Notes under the pieces: model-generated
What the model saw: only the letters and a program-made list of their open reading frames with translations
Told to the model about the DNA's origin: nothing
The model's database searches: none
Program-made: the position numbers and the translations under genes
IMG/VR virus record: IMGVR_UViG_3300024999_000040
Span: 62,001 to 126,000 of that record
From: a virus
DNA length: 64,000 nucleotides
Direction: 5' to 3' (one strand)
In this document: piece after piece, positions 1 through 60,260 of the stretch
How positions within the stretch are numbered: the first letter of the stretch is position 1
Layout of the letters: every line of letters begins with the position of its first letter

Positions 1-172
1 TCATATTTTGAGGACTAGCATATGGGAAAATACCTTCATTACTTTTAATTTTCTTGACATAACTTTTATTTGTAGTCCCTCCTGTAGCTTTTCCTTCAAC
101 TTCTTTACTGCTCATGTTTAACCTTGCATTTCTCGTTTCTATTGCTGTAATTCCCTGCAAAAATCTTGTCAT
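1..172 (-). CDS. cas7: Cas7-like CRISPR backbone protein, N-terminal part only
   Basis: The frame opens with ATG at 172 behind AAGGAG and runs off the left edge after 57 codons. The start MTRFLQGITAIETRNARLN followed by a GIFPYASPQNM segment resembles the N terminus of Cas7 proteins of the Cst2/DevR type, which coat the crRNA in type I-B Cascade. It follows the cas8-like gene by 46 bp in the same operon, which supports the call. Only the N terminus is visible, so the family call rests partly on context. Confidence 0.7.
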   Translation of the reverse strand, partial: MTRFLQGITAIETRNARLNMSSKEVEGKATGGTTNKSYVKKIKSNEGIFPYASPQNM

Positions 173-218
173 AACAATAATCTCCTTTTAAAAATTTTAT
201 TTGAATTTATTTTAATAA

Positions 219-1316
219 TTACTGCATAGTTATTCTGAATTGAAGAGAAGTTTTATAATCTTTCCATTTTCTAAAATTTAAAACTTCTTCCATTTCATCT
301 AAGTTAGATAGAATATTTAAACTTTCTTGATATTTAAGCAAAAAATCTTGAAATTTAGATTTATTATCACAACATCTTAGTTGTTTAGACAGTTCTTTAC
401 TATCTTCTGATTCAAGTAACTTTATACATATCTTATTAACAATTTCTTTTTGCTTTTCTGTCATTTCATAATCCTCCAATAATTCATATAATTCTTTTGA
501 GCAATTTTTATTATATTTTAATAATGTATTTGTAAAACTACTTTTATTTATCAAATTATAAAATAAACCTAGTTCAATAAATTCATGTAGTAATTGAGAT
601 GATTTTAAATCTGATAATAAATTATAATCTTTTCTATTAAGAACTTTTTCATCATAAAAAACATTTTGTCCATTTGCAATGCAGTGTTGAGATAAGTAAT
701 TTGAATTAAACATATCTTGAATTCGCTTTATATTTAAACAAGTTTCAATGTAATTATCAGTTTTCTTTATTTTAACATCAATTAATTGATTCTTGTCTAT
801 TTTAAGTTGTTGTTGATTAGTTATATATCTCATGGCTTCATCTGAGTCACTATTATACAATATAGCAGAACCAATTCTTTGATTATTTAAAACACTTATT
901 AAAGATAAATAAACACAAATCGGACATATATCTACATGCTTTAAATTACTAGCATGGTTAAAAAAAGTTTGTGATACCAAGTTAGCTATATATTTTCTAT
1001 CCACTTCTATATTAGTGTTAACTTGTTTTTCTCCACAGATTATACAATATTTATGATTAGATATATTATTTAATAATTCTCTCATAACTTCTTCTATGGA
1101 TTTTTTAGATTTAGTCTGAGTTAATATAGAATTAAAATGTGTTAATGCTTGACAAATGTCTACTCCTTCAGATTTTATTGCAGATTGTATTTTAGCACTT
1201 ATAATTTTATTATTTTCAAATAAATCTTGAATAGTAATTTCTGAATAAGGTTTCTTTATTATATTTTCTAAAACAAATAATCCATTATCAACTTGATAGT
1301 GATATGTTCTTTTCAT
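219..1316 (-). CDS. cas8: Cas8-like large subunit of type I-B Cascade (CXXC-CXXC type)
   Basis: 365 aa protein with two CxxC pairs (C91/C94 and C131/C134), the zinc-binding arrangement of Cst1/Cas8 proteins, which recognise the PAM and seat the crRNA 5' end. The rest is helical and poorly conserved, as usual for Cas8. It is short for the family (often 450-650 aa). It starts one base after the cas6 stop, so the two are translationally coupled, and cas7 follows. Family assignment is inferred from the zinc motif plus position in the operon; the sequence itself is divergent. Confidence 0.7.
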   Translation of the reverse strand: MKRTYHYQVDNGLFVLENIIKKPYSEITIQDLFENNKIISAKIQSAIKSEGVDICQALTHFNSILTQTKSKKSIEEVMRELLNNISNHKYCIICGEKQVNTNIEVDRKYIANLVSQTFFNHASNLKHVDICPICVYLSLISVLNNQRIGSAILYNSDSDEAMRYITNQQQLKIDKNQLIDVKIKKTDNYIETCLNIKRIQDMFNSNYLSQHCIANGQNVFYDEKVLNRKDYNLLSDLKSSQLLHEFIELGLFYNLINKSSFTNTLLKYNKNCSKELYELLEDYEMTEKQKEIVNKICIKLLESEDSKELSKQLRCCDNKSKFQDFLLKYQESLNILSNLDEMEEVLNFRKWKDYKTSLQFRITMQ

Positions 1317-2090
1317 TTAAGCCTCTTTTCTGGAAGTTATATAACTTAAACATCCAGCTCCCGAACTTGAATTTTGTCCTAATCCTAAATAATATATTAT
1401 CTTTTGCATTTTAGGAGAAGTTTGCACCCACACATTATATATATAACCGTTATTGTAGATTTCTTTTACTTTAAAACTTTTTGATTTTATCTCATCTATA
1501 TCATCTATATCAAAGAAAATTTCACCTTTAAAATCTTCTTGATATATTAGTTTATACTTCCTTTTAGCATTTTCAATGAGATTTTTATAATATAAACTTT
1601 CATAAACCGTAAGAGTATATGGCTTACAATTATCATCTTTAGAAGTTTCTATTACTGGACTAAGAGCCTTATATAACATTATGTTATTAAAAAGTACTGA
1701 CTTATCAACTTTAATATCTTTTAATATAAATTCATTGTCTTGTAATTTTATTTTTTTTGCATGAAGAATACCCTTAATGATTTTTTTGATAATATCTTCT
1801 TTACCAGAAATAATAAGTTTTAATATTGTATATTTATTTATTTTTATACCTTGTTTTGTAAAATGAGCATTCTCAAATAATAAAGTGAAGTTAAATAATT
1901 TATATATATGTCCTGATTCAACTCTATAACCTTGATTATGTAACATTTTTTCTAATATTTGATCAGATATTGATAAATAATAGTAACAATTTTTCATAAC
2001 TTCATAATTATTATCATATGGTATTACTGTTTCTATTGGTGAAGTAAATATAATTTGTTTCCTGCAAAATAAACTTTCTTTAGTCTGCAT
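1317..2090 (-). CDS. cas6: Cas6 CRISPR RNA endoribonuclease
   Basis: 257 aa. The C terminus carries the glycine-rich loop typical of Cas6 (GLGQNSSSGAG, about residues 236-246), which binds the repeat RNA. Cas6 cuts pre-crRNA inside the repeat and can stay on the crRNA hairpin within Cascade. The start overlaps the cas5 end by 11 bp and the stop abuts cas8, so all are one operon. No CRISPR array is visible in the window, so its substrate must lie beyond the left edge or come from the host. Confidence 0.8.
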   Translation of the reverse strand: MQTKESLFCRKQIIFTSPIETVIPYDNNYEVMKNCYYYLSISDQILEKMLHNQGYRVESGHIYKLFNFTLLFENAHFTKQGIKINKYTILKLIISGKEDIIKKIIKGILHAKKIKLQDNEFILKDIKVDKSVLFNNIMLYKALSPVIETSKDDNCKPYTLTVYESLYYKNLIENAKRKYKLIYQEDFKGEIFFDIDDIDEIKSKSFKVKEIYNNGYIYNVWVQTSPKMQKIIYYLGLGQNSSSGAGCLSYITSRKEA

Positions 2091-2712
2091 ATATGTAATC
2101 TCCTTTTATGCTCCATATAAATATATTTTGATTATCATCTTCGTCAAAATTTTTATCATAATTAAATTCATTATTAAATCGTAGAGATATAATTCTTGAA
2201 TCATAACTACCTAGTTTTGAATTATATTTTGTATATGCTGTTAACATAGGGATAATGTGTCCAGTTCCTATATTAATTGGAGTATATTGACCATAGCCAA
2301 TCCCTTGTTTGTTAACTAATTCAATTTCTTGTATTGGCATCTCTATTTTTGCTAATGAATCGGCTTGCCCCAATGTTAAAGTTCTAAACATGTTTATAGG
2401 TAATTTTATATCTGTATATATTATTAATTCAGTATCAAATAAATATTCTTTAGAACATGCGTCAGTAGTCATATTCTTTGGTTTTTGGTTTTTAATATCC
2501 ACTTTATACTTCTTGACTAAATCTTCGAATAGAGTGTCATATTTAAAGGTATATCCTAATTTAAAGTTGTTTATATTAAAACCATAGATATTTCTTAAAA
2601 TGCCAATCACTGTACTAGGAGGAGGACACCTATGTGTCATTCTATTTTTGGAAGTATACGGTATTCCAAAATGTGCAATAGGAGCTATAATTTTAATTTT
2701 CTGTAGTTTCAT
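2080..2712 (-). CDS. cas5: Cas5 subunit of type I-B Cascade
   Basis: 210 aa RAMP-type protein. Residues 25-40 (MTHRCPPPSTVIGILR) match the Cas5 signature of a PPPSTVIG loop just after the first strand; Cas5 holds the 5' handle of the crRNA. It is the first gene of the operon, 25 bp behind a strong promoter. The order cas5-cas6-cas8-cas7 differs from the common cas6-cas8-cas7-cas5-cas3 order. cas3 is not seen in the window. Confidence 0.85.
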   Translation of the reverse strand: MKLQKIKIIAPIAHFGIPYTSKNRMTHRCPPPSTVIGILRNIYGFNINNFKLGYTFKYDTLFEDLVKKYKVDIKNQKPKNMTTDACSKEYLFDTELIIYTDIKLPINMFRTLTLGQADSLAKIEMPIQEIELVNKQGIGYGQYTPINIGTGHIIPMLTAYTKYNSKLGSYDSRIISLRFNNEFNYDKNFDEDDNQNIFIWSIKGDYIYAD

Positions 2713-2736
2713 TTTTGTATTTACCTCACATTTGTT

Positions 2737-2764
2737 ATTATATCAACTTAGTTCAACAAGTCAA
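2737..2764 (-). promoter_or_regulatory. Promoter of the cas operon (class A)
   Basis: Minus-strand -35 TTGACT (2759-2764) and -10 TATAAT (2737-2742), 16 bp apart, 25 bp before the cas5 start. The spacer ends in TGAACTAAGTTGA, a sequence shared with five other promoters in the window, which suggests coordinated control. Confidence 0.8.
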
Positions 2765-2849
2765 GTGTTTTTTATTTATTGATTCTTTTTCTAGATACCT
2801 CCTTTTAGTTGCAAATTTGCTAACTTGTTTATTTGTTGACTGTGATTCC

Positions 2850-2879
2850 ATTATACTATAGTAGATAACATCTTGTCAA
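2850..2879 (-). promoter_or_regulatory. Upstream tandem promoter of the cas operon (class B)
   Basis: TTGACA (2874-2879), 18 bp spacer, TATAAT (2850-2855) on the minus strand, preceded by an AT-rich stretch that recurs before two other promoters. It lies about 110 bp upstream of the class A promoter, so the cas operon has two starts. An AAAGGAGG follows at about 2805 with no start codon behind it. Confidence 0.75.
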
Positions 2880-5082: not shown

Positions 5083-5772
5083 TTATCTTATATCCACAGA
5101 CAAATTCTTATCAGAACAATCCAAATATACTACCTTTGTCATTGAAGGAACAACAATATATTCTTTTGGAATGCTCAATCTCATATTATTAATCATATTG
5201 TCTTGCATTTCTTTATTTATGGCTGGTTTATTATCTTTATCTTTTGGAATTTCATGAACTATAATACCTTTTATTTTATCGAGATTGTTTTGTTGCCATT
5301 CTCTTATCTCTTCAACTTTCGATTCGATTTTTAATTTCTCTGCCTTTTTACTTGCTTCTTCAATTAAATAATTTGCTCTATTTTGTTCTTTATTTTCCTT
5401 ATAGATTTGTTTAACACAATTTAATTTAGATAACAATTTTTCCTTATTATTTTCTTGATCATCAATATATTCAGTGACATAAGATACATTGTAGTAAATA
5501 TAACCATCTGTACCTACTGTAACTTTTTGAATTGTTGTATAAACTCCCTTTTCACTTAAAAATATTTCATCTTTTTCTTTTAATTGATGAGGTAGTTCAT
5601 ATTCACCAATCTTAACTCTTTCTATTGTTTCTGAATCTTCTTCTAATTTTGGTTCACATAAAGAATTTTTTAAAGACCATTCATCTGCATTTTCTAGTTT
5701 GTAGAACCTTCTCACTTTTCTTCCCATTAAAATACTATGTACTTTATTAGTTTTGCTTTTTATTGTTGACAT
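5083..5772 (-). CDS. Hypothetical protein with central charged helix
   Basis: 229 aa. The first 110 residues are strand-rich, the next 60 form a lysine- and glutamate-rich helix, and the C terminus is a short beta segment (EYIVVPSMTKVVYLD). No family recognised. Starts behind GGTAGG. Confidence 0.55.
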   Translation of the reverse strand: MSTIKSKTNKVHSILMGRKVRRFYKLENADEWSLKNSLCEPKLEEDSETIERVKIGEYELPHQLKEKDEIFLSEKGVYTTIQKVTVGTDGYIYYNVSYVTEYIDDQENNKEKLLSKLNCVKQIYKENKEQNRANYLIEEASKKAEKLKIESKVEEIREWQQNNLDKIKGIIVHEIPKDKDNKPAINKEMQDNMINNMRLSIPKEYIVVPSMTKVVYLDCSDKNLSVDIR

Positions 5773-6418: not shown

Positions 6419-6619
6419 TTATTGTCTCATTATTTCTTTAGAAAAATCATACAAATCATCTTCCTCGATTTCCATATGAGGCATTTCACCGTTACACTTG
6501 ACACAATACAAATGTTTAATGTGATGTTTCTCACGTTTTTTATTAAGTTTTCTAGGGATAGGGAATATGTTCCCACATCCCAAGCATTGTAGATTTTGAA
6601 TATAAATGTTTTTCTTCAT
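6419..6619 (-). CDS. Small zinc-ribbon protein
   Basis: 66 aa with CLGC at residues 12-15 and CVKC near residue 38. Basic between the knuckles (RKLNKKREKHH), acidic at the C terminus. Its start overlaps the stop of the macrodomain gene, so the two are translationally coupled. Confidence 0.6.
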   Translation of the reverse strand: MKKNIYIQNLQCLGCGNIFPIPRKLNKKREKHHIKHLYCVKCNGEMPHMEIEEDDLYDFSKEIMRQ

Positions 6620-7191
6620 AATAATTGTTGAATTTCTCTTTGTCTATTGCCAGCAAAATTCCAATCAATTCTCTTTGGTGGATTTAGAAAATTCTTATAA
6701 GCTAATGCCATTTGTTTTGCAGCTATATCAAAAGGTACTCTACCAGTTGCAGTACCTAATCCACAACATGCAACAGTTTGAATATTTCTATGTTTACTTG
6801 TAGCAATTAGCATAGCTTTCATTGCTTGATAAACATTGTCTGTGTTTCTTATATCCATAGGGACTCTCATTGTAGGAGTATGTGCTAAGTATGGATGCAT
6901 GTCATGATAAGTTTGAATAATAAATGATGTTCCTACTGGCTGTTCTCCAGCATAGTTTTCAATAATATATTCTTGTACTCTTTCCATTAATTGAGTACCA
7001 AAATATCTTGTAATGGCTAAATCTATACCACCATCCATTAATCCAAAAGAATTTGCAGGACTAACTATACAATCATAATCAGGCAAATTTTCTAAAGATG
7101 AATGTAGTACAGTTACATTAGTCAAATCTTTAAAGGCTATTTCAAATTCTTTGCATAGGTCTTTATTTATATCAAATAATAGTAAATTCAT
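6616..7191 (-). CDS. Macrodomain protein (ADP-ribose binding or processing)
   Basis: 191 aa, nearly all macrodomain. Residues 44-57 (SPANSFGLMDGGID) match the ADP-ribose-binding loop, where the N and D contact the distal ribose and adenine; ACCGLGTATGRVP is the second phosphate loop. Proteins of this family in phages bind or hydrolyse ADP-ribose derivatives. Its stop overlaps the next gene and its start overlaps the stop of the 7188-7529 gene by 4 bp. It belongs with the NADAR (20.6 kb), PARP (51.6 kb) and NAMPT (63 kb) genes as part of an NAD-related set. Confidence 0.85.
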   Translation of the reverse strand: MNLLLFDINKDLCKEFEIAFKDLTNVTVLHSSLENLPDYDCIVSPANSFGLMDGGIDLAITRYFGTQLMERVQEYIIENYAGEQPVGTSFIIQTYHDMHPYLAHTPTMRVPMDIRNTDNVYQAMKAMLIATSKHRNIQTVACCGLGTATGRVPFDIAAKQMALAYKNFLNPPKRIDWNFAGNRQREIQQLL

Positions 7192-23082: not shown

Positions 23083-26000
23083 TTGCTTTCTCCATTCTGA
23101 AATTTGTAAGTGATATTACTATATTTTGGTATCCAATATTCAACAGTTCCATCTACTTCTCTATATATTTTCTTTCCTGTATCTGGATTAATTTCTCCTG
23201 TTGGTTCTTTTTGTGGCTTTTCATCAATAACTTTAACAAACAAAAAATCTCCTTGATCAAATGGTTGTTTATTATATTGATTTGTCCACATTTTTGTTTC
23301 TATTGTTTCACCATATTTAATTCTATACAAGATTACTTTAGTTATTGATTTTAGTACTTCCAACTCCGAAATATAATAAATATCATATGAATATTGATTA
23401 TCACTAAAAGTAATGATTCCTAGAATTTCCTTCTGATTGTCTATTATCTCTTTTGTGGTTAAAGGAATATTTTCTATATTACTTATAATATCCTGTAACA
23501 AATCTTTATTTCTAAGTTTAGTAACTTTTTTTGCAGTTTCATTTCCATAACCCAAAACAAAATCTAGCTTTATTCCATATTCTTCTATTTTGGCTTTAGA
23601 AATTTCTTTTGATTCTCCAAAAATATCATTCCATTTTATAATTTGTAAAAGATAATTAACACCACCAAATTGTTTAAAATAATTTAACTTAACAAGTTTT
23701 TCAATAACAGTTTTATTAATTCCAACTCCTTTTAAAGAATCAAGGAATTCTATAAAATTATTATATTTACTTTGTCCAAGTTCAAATAATGTTTGCGATA
23801 CCTTTTCACCAAATCCTTTTATACTAGACATATTCGGATAGATAACTTTATTTTGTTCATCAATATTTACTCTTCTATTATCTATACCAAATTCATAATC
23901 CCCAAGTCTATATCCATAAAAAGTTAAAGCTTCTTTTACAAGTGCATCAATTTTCTTTTTATTCTCTTTATCTTGATAGTGGTTAATTGCTACTTCATAA
24001 AATTTTGTTGTATGATGTGCTTTAAACCACGCTTGATATGCACTATCACCTCCCATTGATAAAGCATGTGGAGCATTAAATGCATACCTTGCTGAGTCCT
24101 CGATAACATCCCAAATATTATCAAAATTATCAAGATTATTAAATATCTTAATCCAATTTTCTTTTAATGTACTTTTTAATTTATCTAACTTCTCTCCTTT
24201 AAGTTTCTTTTTAGATATCGCTTTTAAAACACCATATGCCTCACCCATAGGTAAACCAAGAAAAGATAATAACTTCATTATAGATTCTTGATATAACATA
24301 AAGTGATAACTATCAGTAAGTAAATCATCTATAATTTTTTCTCCGGTTGTATAGTTTTCTCTTGCTAAAAATGTTCCTAATAGCGATTTAAATCCTGGTC
24401 GTATACCAGCTATAAAAGCACTAGATTCAGCTAAAGTTTTTGCTTTATATTGTTTTGCTTTCTTCGTTGTTGATTCTTTTTCAACTTGATTAACACAACA
24501 AGTTATTCCTTTTTCATATATCTCCCATGTTGCTTCATCGTTTTGAATCATTTCTCTTAATTCATCAAAAGTAGGTACTTCTTTCCCAATACTTTGAAAA
24601 AACTTATGAGTTAAATGAACACTATCAACTATAAGATAATCATTTTTTACATAGCCAAATTCATCAAGATAATTACCTTCTATACAAGCACATAGAGTAC
24701 GTTTTCCTGTAGTCTCTGATACTGCATTGATTAATCCTATCTTGCGTCTTATATCTCCTTCTAGCAACAAATAACCGCATGGATGAGCCTTTAGATTTAT
24801 TGTAATTCCTTGATATTCTAAACTGCCTTTATAAATTTCAAGATATTCTTCTGGAATAAAGTCTTCAATATGTATGAATTCTTTATCTTCTTCATCAGCA
24901 TATTTTAATTTATCGTTATACTTATCAATAAACTTAGATATTTCATTTGCAACTTCTGGTTCAACATCATTTGCTCCTGCGAATAATTGCCATGCTGCCT
25001 TTTCTTTAAGTTTTTCAATTGCCATCAAAGGATAACAACTATGATATCCAATTAGTTCTCTTGTTGCTTCTACAAAAGGTTCTTGTACGGCAACATTATA
25101 ATCTATATCTGGCATTTGTCCACTTAATACCCTATCTTTTGTTAAAAATCTTTCAGGATATATAGGAATTTCACAATTAAATCTATCTATTGTAGTAAAT
25201 CCCAATAATTTATTTGTTATAAATGATGCAGCACTACCTCTTGATGTGGTAGTTAAAATTCCACCTTTTTCATTAACTGCTTTAGATATTATATGATAAT
25301 TAGTTAATGGATAATCTACTACTCCACTATCCACATATTCTCCTACTTCATATCTTATACCTGCAACTTTTTCAGGTGTTTTTAACTTTTCATGTTTATA
25401 ACTATCATTTATAATTTTCTTAAATATTTTAGTTCTTTCTTCATATGTAGTATTTGGATAAACACAAGGTATTTTGAAACTCTGATCAAAAACTGTTTCT
25501 TCACATTCATTAATAAATACATTTGTATTCATCATTGATGTTAGAATTTCTTCATTATTTAAAACACCTTGCCTTTTAAACCTTTCGAATATTTCTTTAT
25601 TATTAGGATAATCAAGATACCATCCTTCTTCATCTTCATAGGTGATGCCTTTGTATTTTAATATCTGATCACGTTTAATTGTATTTTCAGGTTTAACATA
25701 ATGGCTATCTAATCCGCATATAATTTGTATTCCGTATTTCTTAGATATTTCTAATATTTTTTCATTGAGAAATTTTTGGCTTGGAGTATTATGATTTTGT
25801 ACTTCTAAAAAGAAATTATCTCCAAAATGTTCATGAACTTTTAACCATATATCTTCTGCATCTTCATATTTCCACCCTGTAACACATGCGGAGGTTATTA
25901 TCATATTATCTTTAGGAATATTAAATAACAATTCTAAATCAATTCTAGGTTTATAATAATAACCATCTTCGTTCGCAATAGAAAGAGCAAAATTCAAGTC

Positions 26001-26369
26001 TTCACGCCCTATCTCATTCTTTGCAACTAAAACTATATGACAATTAGTTCTATCTTTTTCTATTCTATTTTTAACCCAATATGCTTCAGCAGAATGTCTA
26101 TACTTTAATTCATATTTTTTAGCAATTTTATATGCTTCAAACTGGTTTCCTTGGTTTCCATGTTCCCCACTAAATAAACATCTTCCTTTATATTCAATAG
26201 TTTTTTCTGCATAATTTTCTATTGGTTCTGCACAATCAGGAGTAGAAACATTTGAATGATAAGTATGCTTATGATAGTTCTCACAATATAAATTTTCTAA
26301 ATAATCATCTACATTATAAGGAAATTTAAATGATAAAGAAGGTATTATTTTTTCAATTAGTTCTCTCAT
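23079..26369 (-). CDS. dnaE: DnaE-like DNA polymerase III alpha subunit
   Basis: 1096 aa C-family polymerase. An N-terminal PHP domain (YHKHTYHSNVS, residues 32-42) is followed by the palm: SRGSAASF (376-383), then MPDIDYN (419-425). In bacterial DnaE this reads PDFDxDF with two catalytic Asp; here the second is Asn (N425). The following VAVQEPFVEATREL seems characteristic of a phage subfamily. Tandem HhH and an OB-like end are shorter than in cellular DnaE. It is the likely phage replicase, with DnaB, SSB and helicase genes downstream in coordinates and upstream in transcription. Confidence 0.88.
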   Translation of the reverse strand: MRELIEKIIPSLSFKFPYNVDDYLENLYCENYHKHTYHSNVSTPDCAEPIENYAEKTIEYKGRCLFSGEHGNQGNQFEAYKIAKKYELKYRHSAEAYWVKNRIEKDRTNCHIVLVAKNEIGREDLNFALSIANEDGYYYKPRIDLELLFNIPKDNMIITSACVTGWKYEDAEDIWLKVHEHFGDNFFLEVQNHNTPSQKFLNEKILEISKKYGIQIICGLDSHYVKPENTIKRDQILKYKGITYEDEEGWYLDYPNNKEIFERFKRQGVLNNEEILTSMMNTNVFINECEETVFDQSFKIPCVYPNTTYEERTKIFKKIINDSYKHEKLKTPEKVAGIRYEVGEYVDSGVVDYPLTNYHIISKAVNEKGGILTTTSRGSAASFITNKLLGFTTIDRFNCEIPIYPERFLTKDRVLSGQMPDIDYNVAVQEPFVEATRELIGYHSCYPLMAIEKLKEKAAWQLFAGANDVEPEVANEISKFIDKYNDKLKYADEEDKEFIHIEDFIPEEYLEIYKGSLEYQGITINLKAHPCGYLLLEGDIRRKIGLINAVSETTGKRTLCACIEGNYLDEFGYVKNDYLIVDSVHLTHKFFQSIGKEVPTFDELREMIQNDEATWEIYEKGITCCVNQVEKESTTKKAKQYKAKTLAESSAFIAGIRPGFKSLLGTFLARENYTTGEKIIDDLLTDSYHFMLYQESIMKLLSFLGLPMGEAYGVLKAISKKKLKGEKLDKLKSTLKENWIKIFNNLDNFDNIWDVIEDSARYAFNAPHALSMGGDSAYQAWFKAHHTTKFYEVAINHYQDKENKKKIDALVKEALTFYGYRLGDYEFGIDNRRVNIDEQNKVIYPNMSSIKGFGEKVSQTLFELGQSKYNNFIEFLDSLKGVGINKTVIEKLVKLNYFKQFGGVNYLLQIIKWNDIFGESKEISKAKIEEYGIKLDFVLGYGNETAKKVTKLRNKDLLQDIISNIENIPLTTKEIIDNQKEILGIITFSDNQYSYDIYYISELEVLKSITKVILYRIKYGETIETKMWTNQYNKQPFDQGDFLFVKVIDEKPQKEPTGEINPDTGKKIYREVDGTVEYWIPKYSNITYKFQNGESK

Positions 26370-26380
26370 ATTATATTCCT

Positions 26381-29173
26381 TTACTTTAATATTTCTTTTA
26401 ATTCATCTGCGAACAAACAATATTTACCTTTATTTCTACTTTTATTTTCATTAGTATTATATGTAATATACAGTTCATCTTTTGCTCTAGTGATATCAAC
26501 AAATAGAAGTCTTCTTTCTTCTTCAAGTAAATTCAAATCGTCTTGAATTTCGTCATATTTAAATGAATTAATAGTTGTAATAACTACACTCCATTCCTTG
26601 CCTTTGCTACTATGTGCTGTTGTCAAAGTTACTACATTGTATTTATTTTCATCTTTTTCTATGCTTGTATCATCATTATATAAATTTATTTTATAAATAT
26701 GTTCTAAGAAAAGATTAAAATTATCAAAAGTTATTTCTTGTAAATCTTCAATAAAACTTTTTGCTATTTCATCTTTTTCTATAATGGGATCAATTAATTT
26801 ATAAAAATATTCTATTCTTGATTCTTCAGATTTTAAACTACTGAATTCCTCTATTATTTTTATTTTAAAATCATTACAAAACATTTCAATATATTCCTTA
26901 TTCTTTTCTGAAAGCTCATTAATAAAATACAAATGCTCCATCAAATAATAATCATGTTCATTGTTTTTAAAGAAATTACTTAAATTTATTATGTGCTGAA
27001 CATTTACATTATCGATATATAACTCACTTGCTTCTATCACATTAGGAATATTTTCTTTTTTAAAGTAACTTTGAATTTCCAGTAATTCTTTTTTGGTTCT
27101 TGCTATTATACAAACTTCATATTTTGGAATGCCTTTAGATATACTCTCTTTTACAAAATTGGTAATACCAATGTATTCATTTTCTAAAGTATCATAAGGT
27201 ATTAAGATAGGTACTTTACCATTACTTCTTCTGCCAATAATTTCTTTATCAATTCTTTGTGTATTTAATTTGTTTAACTCATTAGCAACATAACATATTT
27301 CATTTGTTGACCTAAAATTATCAAGCAGAAAAACGTCATTTACATTTGTAAATTGTTTATCAAAGTTTAAAATGTTCTCAGGCGTAGTATTTCGAAATGA
27401 GTAAATTGCCTGTGAATCATCTCCGACAACCATTAATGAATTCATATTATTATATTTTTCTAATAAATGTAATAACTTTACTTGTGTAAAATCTGTATCT
27501 TGATATTCATCTATTATAACATGCTTAAATCCATATTTGTCAATTAAATTAATATCTACTTCAAATAGTTCAATTAAGTATAATATCTGGTCTTGATACT
27601 GTATTAACCCCTTAGATTTTAGCTTTTCATTAAACTTAGAATACATCTCATAAATAAGATCAGCCTTATTTGATTCTACATTAAAATCCTTTTCTCTTGA
27701 CAAAATTTTCTCATTAAATGTTCCAACACTATAATCATAACTTTTTATAATATTGAAATATATCACAAGTTGCTTAAAAGCCCCTTTAGCATTAGGATAA
27801 TTAAGTAGTGGATTCCTATAATTTAACCATTCTATTTTACTATACTCTTCTATTTCAAACAGTTCTTTAATAATATCATTTACATCTATAGAGTTTGCCA
27901 ACTTAGGTTGTACTGAAAACCCTAGTTTATTCCATTCTTTAGATACTATGCTATCTCCAAAAGAGTTAAAGGTAAAAATATTGAGATTATTAACATTTAT
28001 GTTTTTGATTCCATAATAACTTAACCAATAGTTAATTTTATCTCTTAATTCTTGCGCTCCTTTATTAGTGAAGGTTATTAATAATATATCTCTTGGAGTA
28101 TACCCCTTCTTGAACAATTCTATTGTCCTCATGACCATACTTGATGATTTTCCTGAACCTGCAACAGCATTTATCCTATAATTACCATGTTCTATTTCTA
28201 CAATCTGTTTTTGATCTTTTGTTAGTTTAAGTTCTCCGCTAGATTTCTTAGAATCTATAACTATTTTCATATCCAATTTATTATTAGTATCTTCATAATT
28301 ACATAGAGTTGAATAATTACAAAAATCACAATCGGAAGATTTACATTTTTCTGAATTAAAATTCAAATCAGAATTTAAAAGTTCTATAATTTCAGCATCT
28401 AGGGATTTATCATAATTAAAAGTTATGATATTGTTCCCTTCGGAATTATTAAAATATAGAACATCAGATATTTCCTTAATTTGTTTTTCGTGTTCTTTTT
28501 GCAACTTTTTATCAGGGTAACTAATTAGTTTTAGATTATTTAATACTTCAGTCAGTTCATTTTCATCCGTCAAAAATTGAGAATAAAGGGCTTCTTTATC
28601 CTTCTTCCCTTTTAAATGATAAAATGAAGATATAATTGGTTTACCTTTACTAGCGTATAATTGCTCCCCTAACTTTTTCAAAAGATATAATTCTATATCA
28701 TTCTCAGGTAAATTCTTATCTGTTCTTGCCTTATAACTCAATTCAGTTGCACCCATCTTATATTTTATTATTTCAATACTTTCAGGATTCTCAAAACCCA
28801 CATCAGCATTTATTTCTATTTCTTGATCATTTATTGAAACATTCCCATATATAGTTTTAGCTATTATTTCTCTATTCTTCAGCTTCTCAAAAGTTATATA
28901 TCTTGATAAATGGGAAAATATTATATTTATTTCTACTGTTTTCTCTTGTTTTGTTAAGAAAAACTTTTCTTCTATTAGGTTTTCTATCAAAGATTTTAAC
29001 TCTGTATCCTTTAGGTTAACAAAATCATAATCCTTAATAATAGTTTTATATATTTGGGAAATCATACTGGACTTATTATTAAGAGTCTTAAAATTGCTAA
29101 ATTGAGATACATAGGCTTTAAATTTACAATCTTTTATATTTTTGAGTTGATATAATTTTATTTTATTTTTCAT
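26381..29173 (-). CDS. Fe-S nuclease-like domain fused to an SF1 (UvrD/Rep) helicase
   Basis: 930 aa. Residues 1-300 resemble Cas4/AddB-type RecB nucleases: C16 plus C277/C282/C285/C291 could hold a 4Fe-4S cluster, and ADVGFENPESIEIIKYK (123-139) aligns with the PD-(D/E)xK core, except that the usual Asp of DYK is Lys, so cutting may be lost. Residues 320-930 are a full SF1A helicase: Walker A AVAGSGKSS (336-344), IIDEYQDT, VVGDDSQAIYSFR, TTAHSSKGKEW. The order nuclease-helicase is opposite to AddA. Probably used in replication restart or recombination. Confidence 0.85.
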   Translation of the reverse strand: MKNKIKLYQLKNIKDCKFKAYVSQFSNFKTLNNKSSMISQIYKTIIKDYDFVNLKDTELKSLIENLIEEKFFLTKQEKTVEINIIFSHLSRYITFEKLKNREIIAKTIYGNVSINDQEIEINADVGFENPESIEIIKYKMGATELSYKARTDKNLPENDIELYLLKKLGEQLYASKGKPIISSFYHLKGKKDKEALYSQFLTDENELTEVLNNLKLISYPDKKLQKEHEKQIKEISDVLYFNNSEGNNIITFNYDKSLDAEIIELLNSDLNFNSEKCKSSDCDFCNYSTLCNYEDTNNKLDMKIVIDSKKSSGELKLTKDQKQIVEIEHGNYRINAVAGSGKSSSMVMRTIELFKKGYTPRDILLITFTNKGAQELRDKINYWLSYYGIKNINVNNLNIFTFNSFGDSIVSKEWNKLGFSVQPKLANSIDVNDIIKELFEIEEYSKIEWLNYRNPLLNYPNAKGAFKQLVIYFNIIKSYDYSVGTFNEKILSREKDFNVESNKADLIYEMYSKFNEKLKSKGLIQYQDQILYLIELFEVDINLIDKYGFKHVIIDEYQDTDFTQVKLLHLLEKYNNMNSLMVVGDDSQAIYSFRNTTPENILNFDKQFTNVNDVFLLDNFRSTNEICYVANELNKLNTQRIDKEIIGRRSNGKVPILIPYDTLENEYIGITNFVKESISKGIPKYEVCIIARTKKELLEIQSYFKKENIPNVIEASELYIDNVNVQHIINLSNFFKNNEHDYYLMEHLYFINELSEKNKEYIEMFCNDFKIKIIEEFSSLKSEESRIEYFYKLIDPIIEKDEIAKSFIEDLQEITFDNFNLFLEHIYKINLYNDDTSIEKDENKYNVVTLTTAHSSKGKEWSVVITTINSFKYDEIQDDLNLLEEERRLLFVDITRAKDELYITYNTNENKSRNKGKYCLFADELKEILK

Positions 29174-44011: not shown

Positions 44012-44706
44012 TACTCCTCAACAAAAATTACATCTTGATACCCCAACTTACCAACCAATTCTCTTAAATTGTCTTTCAAGTTAACCAACGCTTCATTAAA
44101 AACTTCTTTATTGTTGGTTAACTTTTCTGTCACTATCTCTTGAGCAATGTCTATTATACCTTTTATGTCTTCAGGTACAAACTGCTTTGAAAGCCAAGAC
44201 TTTTCTCCGTCAATCTTACTATTCTCAGTATCTAATTCTACATATTTAAGTTTAACTTCTGATTTAGGTATTGTAAGAATAACAGTTTCTTCAGAGAATC
44301 TTACAGATATTTTGTTCAAGTCCATGACTATGCCGAAATTATATGCAAGGCTTATATCTAGAGATTTATTTGCAAACCAATTTCCCTCTTTTATATAATC
44401 TGTGTATGTAACAATCCCTTCGCTGATAATTAATTGGTTTACTTTTTGTAGCTCATTTGTAATTATCTCTGGATTTTGTAACTGTTGTAATCGTATCTTT
44501 CTGAGTTTATCTTCTTGTGCTTTCAGTTTGTATGTGTTTACCGTATTTTCTAGGTCTTTGATTTGATTTTGTAGATCATTAGTATCTTGTGTAACCTGTT
44601 GCACTGGTGTAGGTTCTATTTGCTTGGATTGTTTATAATCTAAATAAGCGATTACAATAACTCCTATTGCAACTAGAACAAGTATGAATTTGAAAAACTT
44701 TACCAT
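44011..44706 (-). CDS. DUF4230-like membrane-anchored protein
   Basis: 231 aa. N-terminal anchor (FILVLVAIGVIVIAYL, residues 7-22), a coiled coil (40-75), then a soluble domain with SLAYNFGIVMDLNKISVRF and TVILTIPKSEVKL, the layout of DUF4230 proteins. First gene after the class A promoter at 44727-44755. Function unknown. Confidence 0.65.
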   Translation of the reverse strand: MVKFFKFILVLVAIGVIVIAYLDYKQSKQIEPTPVQQVTQDTNDLQNQIKDLENTVNTYKLKAQEDKLRKIRLQQLQNPEIITNELQKVNQLIISEGIVTYTDYIKEGNWFANKSLDISLAYNFGIVMDLNKISVRFSEETVILTIPKSEVKLKYVELDTENSKIDGEKSWLSKQFVPEDIKGIIDIAQEIVTEKLTNNKEVFNEALVNLKDNLRELVGKLGYQDVIFVEE

Positions 44707-44726
44707 AACTCACTTCCTTGTATATT

Positions 44727-44755
44727 ATTATACCAACTTAGTTAACGTTTGTCAA
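44727..44755 (-). promoter_or_regulatory. Class A promoter
   Basis: TTGACA (44750-44755), 17 bp, TATAAT (44727-44732) on the minus strand, 20 bp before the DUF4230-like gene. Spacer contains GTTAACTAAGTTGG. The -35 overlaps the stop of the upstream gene. Confidence 0.85.
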
Positions 44756-45171
44756 GACAGATATTTGAAATTATTTAATCTCTCAGTCAATTCTTCTGAC
44801 CAAATAGAAAGTAATTCATAATCCTTACTATTTATTTCTATATATTCATATAAAGCTCTACTCAAATCTTTTATTCTTTGATATTCAAATATATCTTTAG
44901 GCATAACACCTAAAGGTGGTTTTGTATATTTATAATCATTAGAAAGAAATTCAAGATTTTCAAAATCAAACAATAAACCACCATTACTTTTATCAATTGT
45001 TTGTATTATTTCATCATCAAAATCAATAACAAATCTACGTCCAATCTTATAATCATAATTTATTGTGCCTGTTTTATTAATATAATCCTCAAGATTCTTA
45101 TAATCATTTTCAAACCCATTCATATTTAGTATTCTTATTTTCTTACCTATGCATTCTAATTCGTTATTCAT
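44752..45171 (-). CDS. SH3-like hypothetical protein
   Basis: 139 aa. The first 60 residues (GKKIRILNMNGFEND, GTINYDYKIGRRFVIDFDD) look like a small SH3 barrel; the C-terminal half begins PPLGVMPKDIFEYQRIKDL, a pattern common in phage hypotheticals with a helical cap. Role unknown. Confidence 0.6.
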   Translation of the reverse strand: MNNELECIGKKIRILNMNGFENDYKNLEDYINKTGTINYDYKIGRRFVIDFDDEIIQTIDKSNGGLLFDFENLEFLSNDYKYTKPPLGVMPKDIFEYQRIKDLSRALYEYIEINSKDYELLSIWSEELTERLNNFKYLS

Positions 45172-45200
45172 AATGATCTCCTCTCATTTTACAATAAAAC

Positions 45201-45740
45201 TTATGATTTATCTTGTTTTCTTTTAATTCTCAGTTCTTTCAATTTCTCTTTCTTTACTTTTAGTAATTCATCAATCTTTTCTTGTAACTTTTCATTTTCT
45301 ATTTCTAATGGATTCTTTTTCTTCTCAACAATACGTTCCTCATATCCGAACATTTCATTTGTAAAATTAATAGCAGAAGCATAAGACCTAGTTAAACTTA
45401 AAAATTTAATGTTATTTCTTATTTGTCTATGTAATCTAGTTATTTGTTTAGTTTCTGAATATGTAACCATTCTAGTTTCTCTTGCTTTTTTGGTTCTTTC
45501 TTCTTTTACTTTACGTTTTTCTTCTTCTCTTTTCCATCTTCTGTCTTCGGACTCTTCACAACGTCTTTGACCATCAACCATTCTATCATATATGTCATCC
45601 ATATCATCATCTGGATTCCAAGACATACCAACGCAAGGTGGTTCAATTGGTATACCTCCCGGAGATGAAGTCATACCACCAGTGCACATTTCACCTAATA
45701 ATGGACATTGACTACAATCTTCAAGTTCTTTATATAGCAT
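45201..45740 (-). CDS. Cys-rich N terminus plus long charged helix
   Basis: 179 aa. The first 40 residues hold CSQCPLLGEMC and PPC, a possible Fe-S or zinc site; residues 65-179 form a long basic coiled coil with repeated KKEK units. No family recognised. Confidence 0.55.
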   Translation of the reverse strand: MLYKELEDCSQCPLLGEMCTGGMTSSPGGIPIEPPCVGMSWNPDDDMDDIYDRMVDGQRRCEESEDRRWKREEEKRKVKEERTKKARETRMVTYSETKQITRLHRQIRNNIKFLSLTRSYASAINFTNEMFGYEERIVEKKKNPLEIENEKLQEKIDELLKVKKEKLKELRIKRKQDKS

Positions 45741-45752
45741 TTTTATACCTCT

Positions 45753-46214
45753 TTATTTTTTACACTTTTCATAGTTCCAGTGTTCACAAGGAACGTCATA
45801 AGATTTTTCATCCATCAAATCAAGTATTTTTTGTGCTAGATTTTTAGGAGTTATCCAATATGACATTTCAGGAGGCAATTCACCTCTATTGTTTTTCACA
45901 TTGTCAGTAATAACAAAGTCTTTTTCATAAGTATCGTAACTATCATAACTAGGTGTTTTATCTGTCTTTAATATTCCTTCTAATGCATCTCTTAAATAAT
46001 CGACATGTAACCAACCTGCAACAAGTTTACGTGACTTCACTTGCCTATTTAAATCCCATAACTGTGTGCTTTTATGATTTATTTCTGAATATATTGGTTT
46101 AATACTTTTCATAAGATTTTCAAATGTCTTATTCAGTTCATTTAATTGTACTATAAATTCATCAATCTGAGAATATAATTCTTCTGGACTAATTTGATTG
46201 TTTTGATCTTCCAT
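45753..46214 (-). CDS. Hypothetical coiled-coil protein
   Basis: 153 aa from the ATG at 46214, behind GAAAGGAGT. N-terminal coiled coil (SQIDEFIVQLNELNKTFENL) and a C-terminal HWNYEKCKK. No family recognised. Confidence 0.55.
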   Translation of the reverse strand: MEDQNNQISPEELYSQIDEFIVQLNELNKTFENLMKSIKPIYSEINHKSTQLWDLNRQVKSRKLVAGWLHVDYLRDALEGILKTDKTPSYDSYDTYEKDFVITDNVKNNRGELPPEMSYWITPKNLAQKILDLMDEKSYDVPCEHWNYEKCKK

Positions 46215-55358: not shown

Positions 55359-55505
55359 TTATTTATATAATCCAAGTTTTTTGCATTCTTCTCTCATAAA
55401 AGCATGTTGTCTTTTACTTAATCCATAATAACCAAATACTAAAAAGTCATCGTAAGTTCTATTAATTTCCTTATTAATAAAATAATTCTTAATCATTTTT
55501 ATCAT
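55359..55505 (-). CDS. Small basic protein
   Basis: 48 aa, ATG at 55505 behind GAGAGGGAA. Helical, with YGLSKRQHAFMREECKKLG at the end. Coupled to the sigma factor gene upstream through a short gap holding a CAATA hairpin. Confidence 0.5.
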   Translation of the reverse strand: MIKMIKNYFINKEINRTYDDFLVFGYYGLSKRQHAFMREECKKLGLYK

Positions 55506-55520
55506 TTTTTTATTCCCTCT

Positions 55521-55542
55521 CAATGAAACATCTATTTCGTTG
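55521..55542 (-). repeat. Intergenic CAATA hairpin (example)
   Basis: Minus strand CAACGAAA and TTTCATTG arms (one mismatch) around a 6 nt loop, just after the sigma factor stop at 55548. Confidence 0.5.
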
Positions 55543-55547
55543 TCTTT

Positions 55548-56153
55548 TTATCCAGCACTTTTAAACACTTTTTCATGTACATAATCTGCTTCAGTTATTA
55601 CTTTTTTAATAATTTCATATATATTACTCTTGCTACAACCTTTAATTTCTGCCATTTCTAAAGGTGTTTTCTTTTGTAAAATATATTCAAATATTTCTCT
55701 GTTTCTACCTTTAAGTATTTCACGCAATTTTATAATTACTTTTTGATTATAAGTAGTATCAATAATATTTGTATAGCAACCTTTATCTTTAAGAACATCT
55801 ATTATCCTATCACCGTTTATTTGATTTCTTGATACAGGAGTATAAATAGAAATTACGTTCTTATCATACATTTTTATTTTATTTCTCGTAACCTTCATTT
55901 TCTTTAGTATCATTGACCTAATACAAATATAAGCCAATGTAGAAAATTTACAGTTCTTAGATTCATCATATCGTTTCATTGCATCATACAAACCCAACAT
56001 GCCTTCTTGAACAAAATCTTCCTCATCATATGTATTGATAATACTTGGATATGTTTTTCTTAAAACTTTCTTAACCAAGTTTTTGTTTTCTTCAAGAAAA
56101 TCATTTATTTTGTTTTTGTCTTGTAGTATTTCTTTAATGTTTATACTTTCCAT
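55548..56153 (-). CDS. Sigma-70 family RNA polymerase sigma factor
   Basis: 201 aa. EEDFVQEGMLGLYDAMKRYDESK then FSTLAYICIRSMI is region 2 (core binding, -10 reading); the C-terminal part from about residue 145 (LREILKGRNREIFEYILQ, TPLEMAEIKGCSKSNIYEII) is a region 4 HTH. Size and layout fit phage or SigF/SigH-like sigma factors. Could direct host polymerase to later phage genes; its target sequence is not identified. Sits directly after the structured RNA block. Confidence 0.88.
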   Translation of the reverse strand: MESINIKEILQDKNKINDFLEENKNLVKKVLRKTYPSIINTYDEEDFVQEGMLGLYDAMKRYDESKNCKFSTLAYICIRSMILKKMKVTRNKIKMYDKNVISIYTPVSRNQINGDRIIDVLKDKGCYTNIIDTTYNQKVIIKLREILKGRNREIFEYILQKKTPLEMAEIKGCSKSNIYEIIKKVITEADYVHEKVFKSAG

Positions 56154-56487
56154 TATTATCTCTCTTTCATAATCTTTTAATGTCCTAAATTATTTACTCT
56201 AAGTTTTTTAGTTTCGCTTTGCACGACTCAGGAAACAATCTATTATAGGAATTCCAATCGTGTCAAGAAATTCCATTGAAGGCGTAGTCCTAATACAATC
56301 CTATCTCGATTTCAGATTATACCATTTAACTACTTTCTCATCTACCCAATAGCTGTACGCTTAGAGTAAATAATTTAAGATACTATATTTAGTTTTATTG
56401 AAGGTTATTCAAGCGATACCTACAAACGCTTTAGAAAGTTTAGCAGACTTTCTATCCCTGTTGCATGAATAAAATGGTATCCATTGC

Positions 56488-56562
56488 TGGCAGCCATTAA
56501 TGGATTCGAACCACCGCATACAGGAGTCAAATTCCTGAGCCTTACCGCTTGGCTAAATGGCT
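56488..56562 (-). tRNA. tRNA-Gln (UUG), CCA encoded
   Basis: Cloverleaf: acceptor AGCCATT/AATGGCT, D arm GCC/GGC, anticodon stem CAGGA/TCCTG with loop ATTTGAC (anticodon TTG at 56528-56530), T arm GGTGG-TTCGAAT-CCATT, discriminator G, and genomic CCA. Reads CAA, common in this AT-rich genome. Confidence 0.9.
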
Positions 56563-56852
56563 ATGTAATACGGTTAATCCACCCACCGTAAGGGAGTTGT
56601 CATCAACTCACATGGAACAGTCTTATCATTCTACTGCCAAGTCGAGGTTTCTGTATCTGTATGCATCCAGTATACCAATTTTATCAAAACCACCCCACCC
56701 ATAAGTGTTTTGACTAGATTATTTCTATTTAACACCAATGATTAAACAACCAAATATCATTGTGTTGTAGGTTCTTATACAGGTGATCTACATTACCTAA
56801 CTCTGTATGCAAAGAGTTACCAGAAAGTTTTACCTTTATTACTTCCAAGTTT

Positions 56853-57910: not shown

Positions 57911-58378
57911 TCAATCTTCTATTTCTGAATCTTCATCATCTTCTCTGTAAAAATAATTACTTGCCCAATTACTAACATGTCTTGTCTCAGTTCTTTCGAT
58001 TTGATAATCTAATCTTTCGCTACGATAACCACTGTCCCTAATTAACTTTCTTAAAGTAATGCCATATTGTAATTCAGTTTCTATATTGTATAAAATATTT
58101 AAAGATAAAGATAATATCTCTTTAGTTACTTCTTCAGAAAAATTAAATTCATTTTCACAAATTCTTACACAAATATATTTTGAATCTTTTGTTCCTACAT
58201 ATCCCCATATGCTTTTTTGTTCTGTTTGATTATTAAATTTAATAGTTATCCATGCTGAATAATATGAAGTAAAATTATATTCGAATTCAGATTCTCTATT
58301 TGCTGAAAGTTCTATGTATTCTACTTCTGGAAAGTATTCGAACATTTTTACTACTTTATAATAATTTTTATTTAACAT
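57911..58378 (-). CDS. Hypothetical protein
   Basis: 155 aa. Alpha/beta with FEYNFTSYYSAWITIKF and a basic-acidic end (ERTETRHVSNWA). No family recognised. Confidence 0.5.
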   Translation of the reverse strand: MLNKNYYKVVKMFEYFPEVEYIELSANRESEFEYNFTSYYSAWITIKFNNQTEQKSIWGYVGTKDSKYICVRICENEFNFSEEVTKEILSLSLNILYNIETELQYGITLRKLIRDSGYRSERLDYQIERTETRHVSNWASNYFYREDDEDSEIED

Positions 58379-58424
58379 TTATTATTCCTTTCAAAACAAA
58401 ATGAATTCTCCCATTCATCGTCTT

Positions 58425-58862
58425 TTAATAATCCAACAAAGTACTATCATTCAAAATATCAAATGCTTTATTATATTTCTTCACTCTTTCTCTATCTTTT
58501 TCAGTAACATTTTTAAGTCTACTTAAATCACTATTATGCTGTAAATCTAATTTTTTAACATATGTAGCAGTAGAATTTTGTTTAACTCTTTTAATATAAT
58601 CAAAATAATCTTCACCTTTTCTATGAGTTAAACAATCCAAAGCATTTAATATTTCATCGGAAAATTCACACATGTATTTTAAATAATTCATATCATAATC
58701 ACTATCTTCAATAACATCATGTAATACAGCTACAATTCTTGTTTCATTATTATAGCATTGCATCATCAAATGCAACGGATGTAGTATATATGGCTTTCCT
58801 GCTTTGTCTAATTGTCCTTCATGTGCATTTACAGCTACCTTAATTGCTCTGTCTAAAGTCAT
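58425..58862 (-). CDS. Single-domain HD hydrolase of the RelA/SpoT type (small alarmone hydrolase-like)
   Basis: 145 aa. HEGQLDKAGKPYILHPL (13-29), VLHDVIEDS (46-54), and KLDLQHNSDLSR near residue 100 match the (p)ppGpp hydrolase HD fold: H-HD-ED-N motifs in order. There is no synthetase or TGS domain, so it is like MESH1/SAH enzymes, which break down the starvation alarmone or NADPH. A phage could use it to keep the host out of stringent response. Confidence 0.82.
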   Translation of the reverse strand: MTLDRAIKVAVNAHEGQLDKAGKPYILHPLHLMMQCYNNETRIVAVLHDVIEDSDYDMNYLKYMCEFSDEILNALDCLTHRKGEDYFDYIKRVKQNSTATYVKKLDLQHNSDLSRLKNVTEKDRERVKKYNKAFDILNDSTLLDY

Positions 58863-58907
58863 AACTACTCCCTTCCTTTGAACTTTCCCTTTTAATTACA
58901 ATTACTC

Positions 58908-59060
58908 TTGTTTTTTATTTTTAAAAGTATTATAATAATATTAGCAATCATAAGATTGGAGACCCTTATGATTTGCTATATTAAGTTTTTTGTAATTACA
59001 ATGTTTGCAGATAGGAGGTGTGATCAAGTACATCTCCTTATTTGCGTTTAATAGGTAAAA
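58908..59060 (+). other. Intergenic hairpin with a plus-strand promoter-like signal
   Basis: Plus strand: TTGTTT (58908-58913), 17 bp, TATAAT (58931-58936), then a 12 bp hairpin (58943-58954 with 58965-58977, one bulge), a T6 run near 58985, and AGGAGGTGTG near 59003. On the minus strand a short frame with CKHCNYKK ends in TAA, perhaps a decayed zinc ribbon. About 200 bp with no clear gene. Confidence 0.35.
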
Positions 59061-59068
59061 ACACTGAT

Positions 59069-59473: not shown

Positions 59474-59491
59474 ATTTACTCCATTCTACCC

Positions 59492-59511
59492 AATAGAATC
59501 ATTATTCTATT
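59492..59511 (-). repeat. Intergenic CAATA hairpin, best formed example
   Basis: AATAGAAT and ATTCTATT, a perfect 8 bp stem with a 4 nt loop, immediately after the stop of the gene at 59511-59828. Confidence 0.6.
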
Positions 59512-59828: not shown

Positions 59829-59868
59829 TTATTATACTCCCTTCATTAAAAACGATGAAAAATTACTT

Positions 59869-60036: not shown

Positions 60037-60037
60037 A

Positions 60038-60175: not shown

Positions 60176-60260
60176 CTAATACAAAATCTTTAATATCTAA
60201 TTTTTCATAATTTGATATTGCATATTTTCTTATTCTTAAAAATACGTCTTGTTGACTCAT
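60141..60260 (-). CDS. Small protein, possibly N-terminal half of a split gene
   Basis: 39 aa from the ATG at 60260. QQDVFLRIRKYAISNYEKLD is a helix; the rest (PYNRSQNN) looks like out-of-frame sequence. See 60038-60175. Confidence 0.4.
   Translation of the reverse strand: MSQQDVFLRIRKYAISNYEKLDIKDFVLGEIPYNRSQNN

What the first reader, a model, noticed from the sequence alone, without database searches (positions are those of the whole stretch)
1..2879. Phage-borne type I-B-like CRISPR effector operon with unusual gene order
cas5-cas6-cas8-cas7 on one transcript, led by two tandem promoters of phage type. The order differs from the usual, Cas8 is small (365 aa), and no cas1, cas2, cas3, cas4 or array is visible. 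Such systems in large phages may target rival phages or host genes, or repress transcription if cas3 is absent.
Basis: partly seen in the sequence, partly recalled or inferred. Interest (0 to 1): 0.75.

Follow-up and report, generated by a model that had tools for sequence, protein, structure and literature searches.

The report
Phage with borrowed CRISPR attack system
A large clostridial phage carries every part needed to cut DNA with a CRISPR system, plus a bank of 13 guides, but none of the parts needed to record new guides; its nearest relatives sit in clostridial genomes, two of them on a small mobile element whose guides match other phages, so it most likely serves one genetic parasite against another.

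Summary
The window starts inside a 148.7-kb phage record. Left of position 1, cas7 continues intact, followed by a 14-repeat/13-spacer CRISPR array and a full-length cas3 with intact HD and helicase motifs. The locus is cas5-cas6-cas8-cas7-array-cas3, all on the minus strand, with no cas1, cas2 or cas4 detected in the record. It is therefore a complete interference module of type I-B (Cst1/Cst2-like), not a Cas3-less repressor.

The gene order and small Cas8 are not phage inventions. Six other loci in clostridial genomes share order, a 382-392-aa Cas8 and absence of adaptation genes. They form one clade with the phage (Cas3 100/99, Cas7 97/95 support). Almost all other near I-B relatives run cas6-cas8-cas7-cas5-cas3, mostly followed by cas4-cas1. 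In two genomes the operon lies on an 18-19-kb integrase-bearing element in the tmRNA gene; seven of its spacer matches were checked, all in Clostridioides phages, with CCW motifs at five. The phage array has unusually varied repeats, so it is probably not growing.

Likely role: DNA-cutting competition with other mobile elements. None of the phage's own spacers found a target. New variant of a known kind.

The parts
2850..2879 (-). Promoter P1: TTGACA-18-TATAAT
   Evidence: 12/12 consensus match. Its -35 box lies in a 34-bp stretch (2874-2907) that recurs at 97% identity at G000:98033-98066, upstream of another phage gene.
2737..2764 (-). Promoter P2: TTGACT-16-TATAAT with TG before the -10 box
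   Evidence: 11/12. Similar promoter-like stretches at G000:112466(-), 71573(-) and 22709(+); two of these reach E 1e-4 to 4e-4, but the match counts do not exceed shuffles.
2080..2712 (-). cas5 (210 aa)
   Evidence: TIGR02593 above cut-off; TIGR01895 Cas5b E 1.6e-17; PADLOC Cas5b.
1317..2090 (-). cas6 (257 aa), crRNA-processing RNase
   Evidence: TIGR01877 E 2.5e-23 above cut-off; Pfam Cas_Cas6_C; solved Cas6 3ufc E 4.7e-12.
219..1316 (-). cas8 (365 aa), large subunit with CxxC...CxxC
   Evidence: PADLOC Cas8b zinc-finger part E 7.7e-5; relatives L038 E 2e-51 and L052 E 1.9e-9; L052 is TIGR01908 Cas8b1/Cst1 E 8.5e-40.
1..172 (-). cas7, first codons only; the gene (354 aa) continues left of the window to L006:11108 (record 61108-62172). 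Further parts lie outside the window: inverted repeat record 61048-61101, CRISPR array (14 repeats, 13 spacers) record 60022-60907, cas3 (676 aa) record 57964-59994, phage integrase (neighbour) record 55390-56595, all on the minus strand.
   Evidence: cas7: TIGR02585 Cst2/DevR E 1.9e-26 above cut-off. Inverted repeat: folding z-score -9.2. Array. cas3: TIGR01587 and TIGR01596 above cut-off, PADLOC Cas3b E 6e-152, catalytic residues conserved. Integrase. Record base = L006 base + 50000 = window base + 62000.

Best explanation
[quoted passage not shown] Shown: cas5, cas6, cas8, cas7, a 13-spacer array and cas3 lie in one direction behind two tandem promoters; all five genes are full length and Cas3 keeps its nuclease and helicase residues; no adaptation gene was found. 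Inferred: Cas6 cuts the array transcript into crRNAs; Cas5, Cas7 and Cas8 load them into a surveillance complex; it binds DNA that carries a matching sequence next to a motif such as CCW; Cas3 is recruited and degrades that DNA. Inferred purpose: to keep competing phages or other mobile elements out of the shared host (superinfection exclusion). New spacers, if any, must come through Cas1-Cas2 supplied by the host; the varied repeats suggest that this array has not grown lately. The module belongs to a clostridial clade of compact, adaptation-less I-B systems, at least partly element-borne, from which the phage acquired it (direction inferred).
For: Whole operon, array and cas3 present. Families: Cas6, Cas7 and Cas3 above curated cut-offs, Cas5 above that of the general Cas5 model. 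Cas3 residues H25, H57-D58, K61, H79, H100-H101, D169, GRTGLGKT and DEIH conserved among relatives. No Cas1/2/4. A 34-bp stretch with the P1 -35 box recurs elsewhere in the phage. Clade: same order and small Cas8 in L038, L040, L041, L126, L127, L128 (L126 without cas3), against the usual order in the other nearest loci; monophyly 100/99 (Cas3) and 97/95 (Cas7), phage beside Alkaliphilus L038. Function by kinship: spacers of L127/L128 match Clostridioides phages at 89-97% identity, 5 of 7 with CCW directly 5', a sixth if the boundary moves by one base. Published precedent: in C. difficile the 'partial' I-B operon without cas1/2/4 is the one needed for interference, with a CCA motif (PMC10732046); haloarchaeal proviruses carry adaptation-deficient I-B systems that mostly target viruses (PMC12596717).
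Against: No convincing target for any of the 13 phage spacers: INPHARED, 395 plus 227 genomes of two orders, related phage fragments, the phage itself; three spacers also failed as translated patterns in IMG/VR. Repeats are heterogeneous (10 distinct among 14), which could mean decay. Expression is not shown; the promoters are consensus matches.
Confidence: 0.7

Rival explanations
1. Counter-defence: the system cuts defence islands or phage satellites that would otherwise parasitise or block this phage, as the I-F system of Vibrio phage ICP1 cuts PLE.
For: The module is complete for DNA cutting; relatives occur on an integrase-bearing satellite-like element, so phages and such elements of clostridia do meet.
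Against: No spacer matched anything in 622 clostridial genomes well enough to believe; the checked spacer matches of the relatives are in phages, not satellites.
Confidence: 0.13
2. A decaying passenger: the operon was captured from a host element and is now losing function, beginning with the array.
For: Phage array has 10 distinct repeats of 14; relatives have 2-4 distinct repeats in 22-31 (L127, L128, L038, L040). No spacer has a known target.
Against: All five genes are open and full length, most with Shine-Dalgarno-like sites; Cas3 motifs intact; repeat changes avoid positions 19-27 and 29, the crRNA handle side.
Confidence: 0.1
3. Regulation of host or phage genes by crRNA-guided binding, as the first reader suggested for a cas3-less system.
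For: Large phages with type I systems lacking Cas3 are reported (PMC7162821); one clade member, L126, does lack cas3 nearby.
Against: Here cas3 is present and intact; no host or self target found.
Confidence: 0.04
4. A host chromosomal island wrongly joined to a viral contig.
For: Closest relatives are in bacterial genomes; an integrase is adjacent.
Against: Phage genes on both sides: tape measure, minor tail, amidase and integrase to the left; DnaB, DNA helicase and DNA polymerase III alpha of phage type to the right; a 34-bp promoter stretch is shared with another phage gene.
Confidence: 0.03

Closest known systems
Type I-B (Cas8b1/Cst1, Cas7/Cst2, 'Tneap' branch) CRISPR-Cas
   Same: Homologous Cas5b, Cas7/Cst2, Cas6, Cas3; Cas8 related to Cst1 proteins through L052.
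   Different: Order cas5-cas6-cas8-cas7-(array)-cas3 instead of cas6-cas8-cas7-cas5-cas3-cas4-cas1-cas2; Cas8 365 aa instead of about 435-590; no adaptation genes.
'Partial' I-B cas operon of Clostridioides difficile (CD2455-CD2451; PMC10732046)
   Same: Interference genes without cas1/2/4, fed by an adaptation module elsewhere; CCA motif; clostridial.
   Different: Chromosomal in most strains; whether its sequence belongs to the clade described here was not tested.
Adaptation-deficient I-B systems of haloarchaeal proviruses (PMC12596717)
   Same: Virus-borne I-B without cas1/2/4, spacers mostly against viruses; outsourcing of acquisition proposed.
   Different: Archaeal; sequence relation and gene order were not compared here.
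phiCD211/phiCDIF1296T-like large Clostridioides phages
   Same: Large temperate clostridial siphophages; DNA polymerase III alpha about 35% identical; some carry a cas3-like gene and phiCD211 a CRISPR array (PMC6127314).
   Different: In the two relatives examined (L012, L013) no other cas genes were seen beside the Cas3-like helicase, and no array was found there; Cas7 and Cas8 of this phage have no tblastn match in INPHARED.
Vibrio phage ICP1 type I-F system
   Same: Phage-borne type I system with its own array and Cas3-type nuclease.
   Different: ICP1 has its own adaptation genes and targets PLE (PMC11656645); this one has none and its targets are unknown.

Membership tests
CRISPR-Cas type I | Cas3 with helicase (and HD nuclease) domains | tested here: met
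   TIGR01587, TIGR01596 above cut-off; residues conserved
CRISPR-Cas type I | CRISPR array beside the cas genes | tested here: met
   14 repeats, 13 spacers
Subtype I-B (Cst1/Cst2 branch) | Cas7 of Cst2/DevR family | tested here: met
   TIGR02585 92.9 bits, cut-off 72.75
Subtype I-B (Cst1/Cst2 branch) | Cas5b | tested here: inconclusive
   TIGR01895 63.8 bits, below its cut-off 96.7, though the best match; general Cas5 model TIGR02593 above cut-off
Subtype I-B (Cst1/Cst2 branch) | Cas8b1/Cst1 large subunit | tested here: inconclusive
   No direct NCBIfam or Pfam match; weak PADLOC Cas8b; homologous to L052 (E 1.9e-9), which is TIGR01908; no significant fold match
Subtype I-B (Cst1/Cst2 branch) | Cas6 endoribonuclease | tested here: met
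   TIGR01877 above cut-off
Complete (adaptive) I-B locus | cas1, cas2, cas4 | tested here: not met
   None in the phage record
Compact adaptation-less clostridial I-B clade (defined here) | order cas5-cas6-cas8-cas7 then cas3, Cas8 under 400 aa, no cas1/2/4, monophyly | tested here: met
   (cas3 missing in L126)
C. difficile 'partial' I-B operon | sequence kinship to CD2455-CD2451 | not tested
   Sequence not at hand; only its lack of adaptation genes compared, from PMC10732046
Haloarchaeal proviral I-B | sequence kinship | not tested
   Only the description in PMC12596717 was used
ICP1-like phage adaptive CRISPR | own adaptation module | tested here: not met

The most novel reading that the evidence does not exclude
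A separate mobile lineage of type I-B, stripped of adaptation genes and rebuilt in gene order, moves among clostridial phages and tmRNA-integrated satellite-like elements and is used by them to fight one another, drawing spacers from host Cas1-Cas2.
Probability: 0.45. Interest if true: 0.68.

Novelty: new variant of a known kind. Interest (0 to 1): 0.55.

Why it matters
Phages below 200 kb rarely carry CRISPR systems (PMC11656645), and this 149-kb phage has a complete I-B interference set in one operon. It links a phage to a small clade of compact I-B systems, two members of which ride on an integrase-bearing element and point at phages. That gives a testable case of CRISPR used between mobile elements, of spacer supply by the host, and of a compact Cas8 that standard NCBIfam and Pfam models miss.

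Tried and rejected
Repression without Cas3: rejected, cas3 found. Phage-specific gene order: rejected, shared with relatives in bacterial genomes. Self-targeting: none above shuffles. Spacer targets in INPHARED, two orders of genomes, related viral fragments: none credible; one 28-nt AT-rich partial match to spacer 3 in G183 (E 1.4e-5 in one of 227 genomes) treated as chance. Translated patterns for spacers 4, 5 and 13 in IMG/VR: none. Repeat with wobble in IMG/VR: none. Cas8 and Cas3 single-sequence scans and a Cas8 profile in IMG/VR: none confirmed; single-sequence Cas3 in genomes: none. Cas7/Cas3 in 17 related viral records: none, but mostly fragments. Cas8 model from one sequence useless (pLDDT 32); with 15 sequences pLDDT 79.5 but no significant PDB match (best row a chain of a type I-C Cascade entry at E 0.88). 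Repeat as a stable hairpin: no. Spacers of L038 against INPHARED: none. Listeria 'phage' LM 4-11-1 as a phage relative: the locus looks chromosomal, record marked unverified.

Full report
What is there. The window is bases 62001-126000 of a 148,716-base virus record with 28.9% GC. I fetched the 16 kb around its left edge (L006 = record bases 50001-66000; window coordinate = L006 coordinate minus 12000). On the minus strand, in order: cas5 (210 aa), cas6 (257 aa), cas8 (365 aa), cas7 (354 aa), a CRISPR array and cas3 (676 aa from its ATG, which lies 27 nt after the last repeat). cas5 overlaps cas6, cas6 abuts cas8, and cas7 follows 46 nt later; most of the genes have a Shine-Dalgarno-like site. 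Families: Cas5, Cas6, Cas7/Cst2 and Cas3 are clear. Cas8 is not recognised by NCBIfam or Pfam, and only its zinc-finger stretch by PADLOC (Cas8b, E 7.7e-5).

Is it really a phage? Left of the locus are tape-measure, minor-tail and amidase genes and an integrase; to the right DnaB, a DNA helicase and a phage-type DNA polymerase III alpha. The polymerase is 54% identical to a human faecal phage fragment and about 35% to the large temperate Clostridioides phages of the phiCD211 kind. So a large clostridial, probably temperate siphophage is the best reading; the host itself is not known. Relatives of the polymerase in IMG/VR are mostly short fragments, and none of the 17 shows Cas3 or Cas7.

Promoters. 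P1 is a 12/12 consensus and P2 11/12. The 34 bp holding the P1 -35 box recur at 97% identity at record base 98033, before another phage gene, so the operon appears to be under phage-type promoter sequences. The similarity of P2 to other phage promoters is weaker: it is significant in the BLAST search for two sites, but match counts do not exceed shuffled controls.

Is the machine intact? Cas3 keeps the catalytic columns that are invariant among its relatives: H25, H57-D58, K61, H79, H100-H101 and D169 of the HD nuclease, GRTGLGKT and DEIH of the helicase. The array has 14 repeats and 13 spacers of 33-37 nt. Ten of the 14 repeats are distinct. In four relatives 22-31 repeats show only 2-4 forms; L039 lies between. 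The changes fall at repeat positions 1, 10, 11, 16, 18, 28 and 30; positions 19-27 and 29, on the side that becomes the crRNA handle, do not vary. The simplest reading is an array that has not been growing by leader-end duplication. No adaptation gene is found: Cas1 by Pfam, Cas1/2/4 by reference proteins.

Where does it come from? A profile of Cas3 in 84,980 species genomes gave 80 loci. The four best are clostridial: Alkaliphilus MAG L038 (48% identity), Clostridium L039, and two loci of one Clostridium MAG, L040 and L041. A profile of Cas8 in 227 and 395 genomes of the two orders concerned found three more: G131 (L126), G441 (L127), G391 (L128). All loci with the full region read cas5-cas6-cas8 (382-392 aa)-cas7-cas3, except that L126 has no cas3 nearby; none has cas1, cas2 or cas4. 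Among the other nearest I-B loci, where the set is readable, the order is cas6-cas8 (about 435-590 aa)-cas7-cas5-cas3, mostly with cas4 and cas1. Trees put the phage and these loci in one clade: 100/99 for Cas3, 97/95 for Cas7, with L038 as sister of the phage (94/84 and 100/98). L038 has the array between cas7 and cas3, as in the phage, with the repeat GTTTTAATTTAAATACATTATTTTATAAAT, close to the phage repeat; in L040, L041, L127 and L128 the array follows cas3. Cas1 was absent from the genomes of L038, L039, L040 (MAGs, perhaps incomplete) and from G131, whose contig is 5.7 Mb; G391 and G441 have one Cas1 each, in a separate I-B locus.

What the relatives do. In G441 and G391 the operon sits on an 18-19-kb element bounded by a 20-bp repeat, TGGTGGAGACGAGGGGAGTC. 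One copy is the end of the tmRNA gene. The element has an integrase, repressors, an HTH_17 protein and DnaB; I saw no structural phage genes, so I call it satellite-like (inference). Its cas genes are about 90% identical between the two genomes, yet the 25 and 30 spacers share none. Spacers therefore turn over, presumably through the host's Cas1-Cas2 (inference). INPHARED matches to these arrays are all to Clostridioides phages (14 and 3 records). I checked seven: 89-97% identity; five have CCA or CCT directly 5' and a sixth would have CCA if the spacer boundary moved by one base. CCA is the motif used for C. difficile I-B (PMC10732046). The two genomes are probably Clostridioides relatives: the tmRNA tag (from memory) and the targets suggest it, but they are unnamed.

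Mechanism. I infer ordinary type I interference: processing by Cas6, a Cas5-Cas7-Cas8 complex, Cas3 degradation of matched DNA. That an adaptation-less I-B operon can do this is published for C. difficile, where the partial operon is the one needed for interference (PMC10732046). The likely benefit is exclusion of competing phages or elements. The step that is missing is a target: none of the 13 spacers has a credible match in the phage itself, INPHARED, 622 clostridial genomes or related viral fragments. Many spacers can be read as open frames, but that is weak.

Known and new. Virus-borne I-B without adaptation genes is described in haloarchaeal proviruses (PMC12596717); type I systems without acquisition in huge phages (PMC7162821); solo cas3 plus array in phiCD211 (PMC6127314). 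PADLOC already holds a Cas8b model that matches the L127 Cas8 (E 5e-53), so part of this clade was known to its authors. I found no description of the clade, its order or its element; my paper searches were few and the library is incomplete. Hence: a new variant of a known kind.

Noticed in passing
G000 24320-24559 + 24570-25961 and 44429-44632 + 44661-45899 (left of the window; L008, L009): Two IscB-like genes (RRXRR plus HNH domains), each directly preceded by a HEARO RNA: two RNA-guided nuclease units in the same phage.
   Followed up: partly
L127/L131 and L128/L132 (G441, G391): An 18-19-kb element in the tmRNA gene with integrase, repressor and DnaB carries the CRISPR operon; in G441 it also carries a TIR/SEFIR-like protein and a protein matching PADLOC PDC-S36 and TmtA models.
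   Followed up: partly
L126 8014-11669 (G131): A clade member with cas5-cas6-cas8-cas7 and a short degenerate array but no cas3 nearby and no Cas1 in the genome: a candidate for binding without cutting, or a relic.
   Followed up: no
L127 about 5560-5700: Two degenerate repeats about 19 nt apart lie between cas3 and the array leader, outside the array; they could encode a crRNA-like regulator.
   Followed up: no
Leaders of L040, L041, L127, L128; phage L006 11048-11101: Perfect inverted repeats (TTTGCAGT...ACTGCAAA, about 108 nt span) precede the array in four relatives; the phage has a different, tighter one after cas7; none in L038. Role unknown.
   Followed up: partly
G000 26286-26414 and 26538-27608: A skipping-rope RNA next to a second tyrosine recombinase gene.
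   Followed up: no
OR846720.1 / L014: A record named Listeria phage LM 4-11-1 (unverified) holds an ordinary cellular I-B locus with a 36-repeat array and metabolic genes; it is probably host DNA.
   Followed up: partly
window 6616-7191: A 191-aa protein that reads like a macro domain (from memory, no search made).
   Followed up: no
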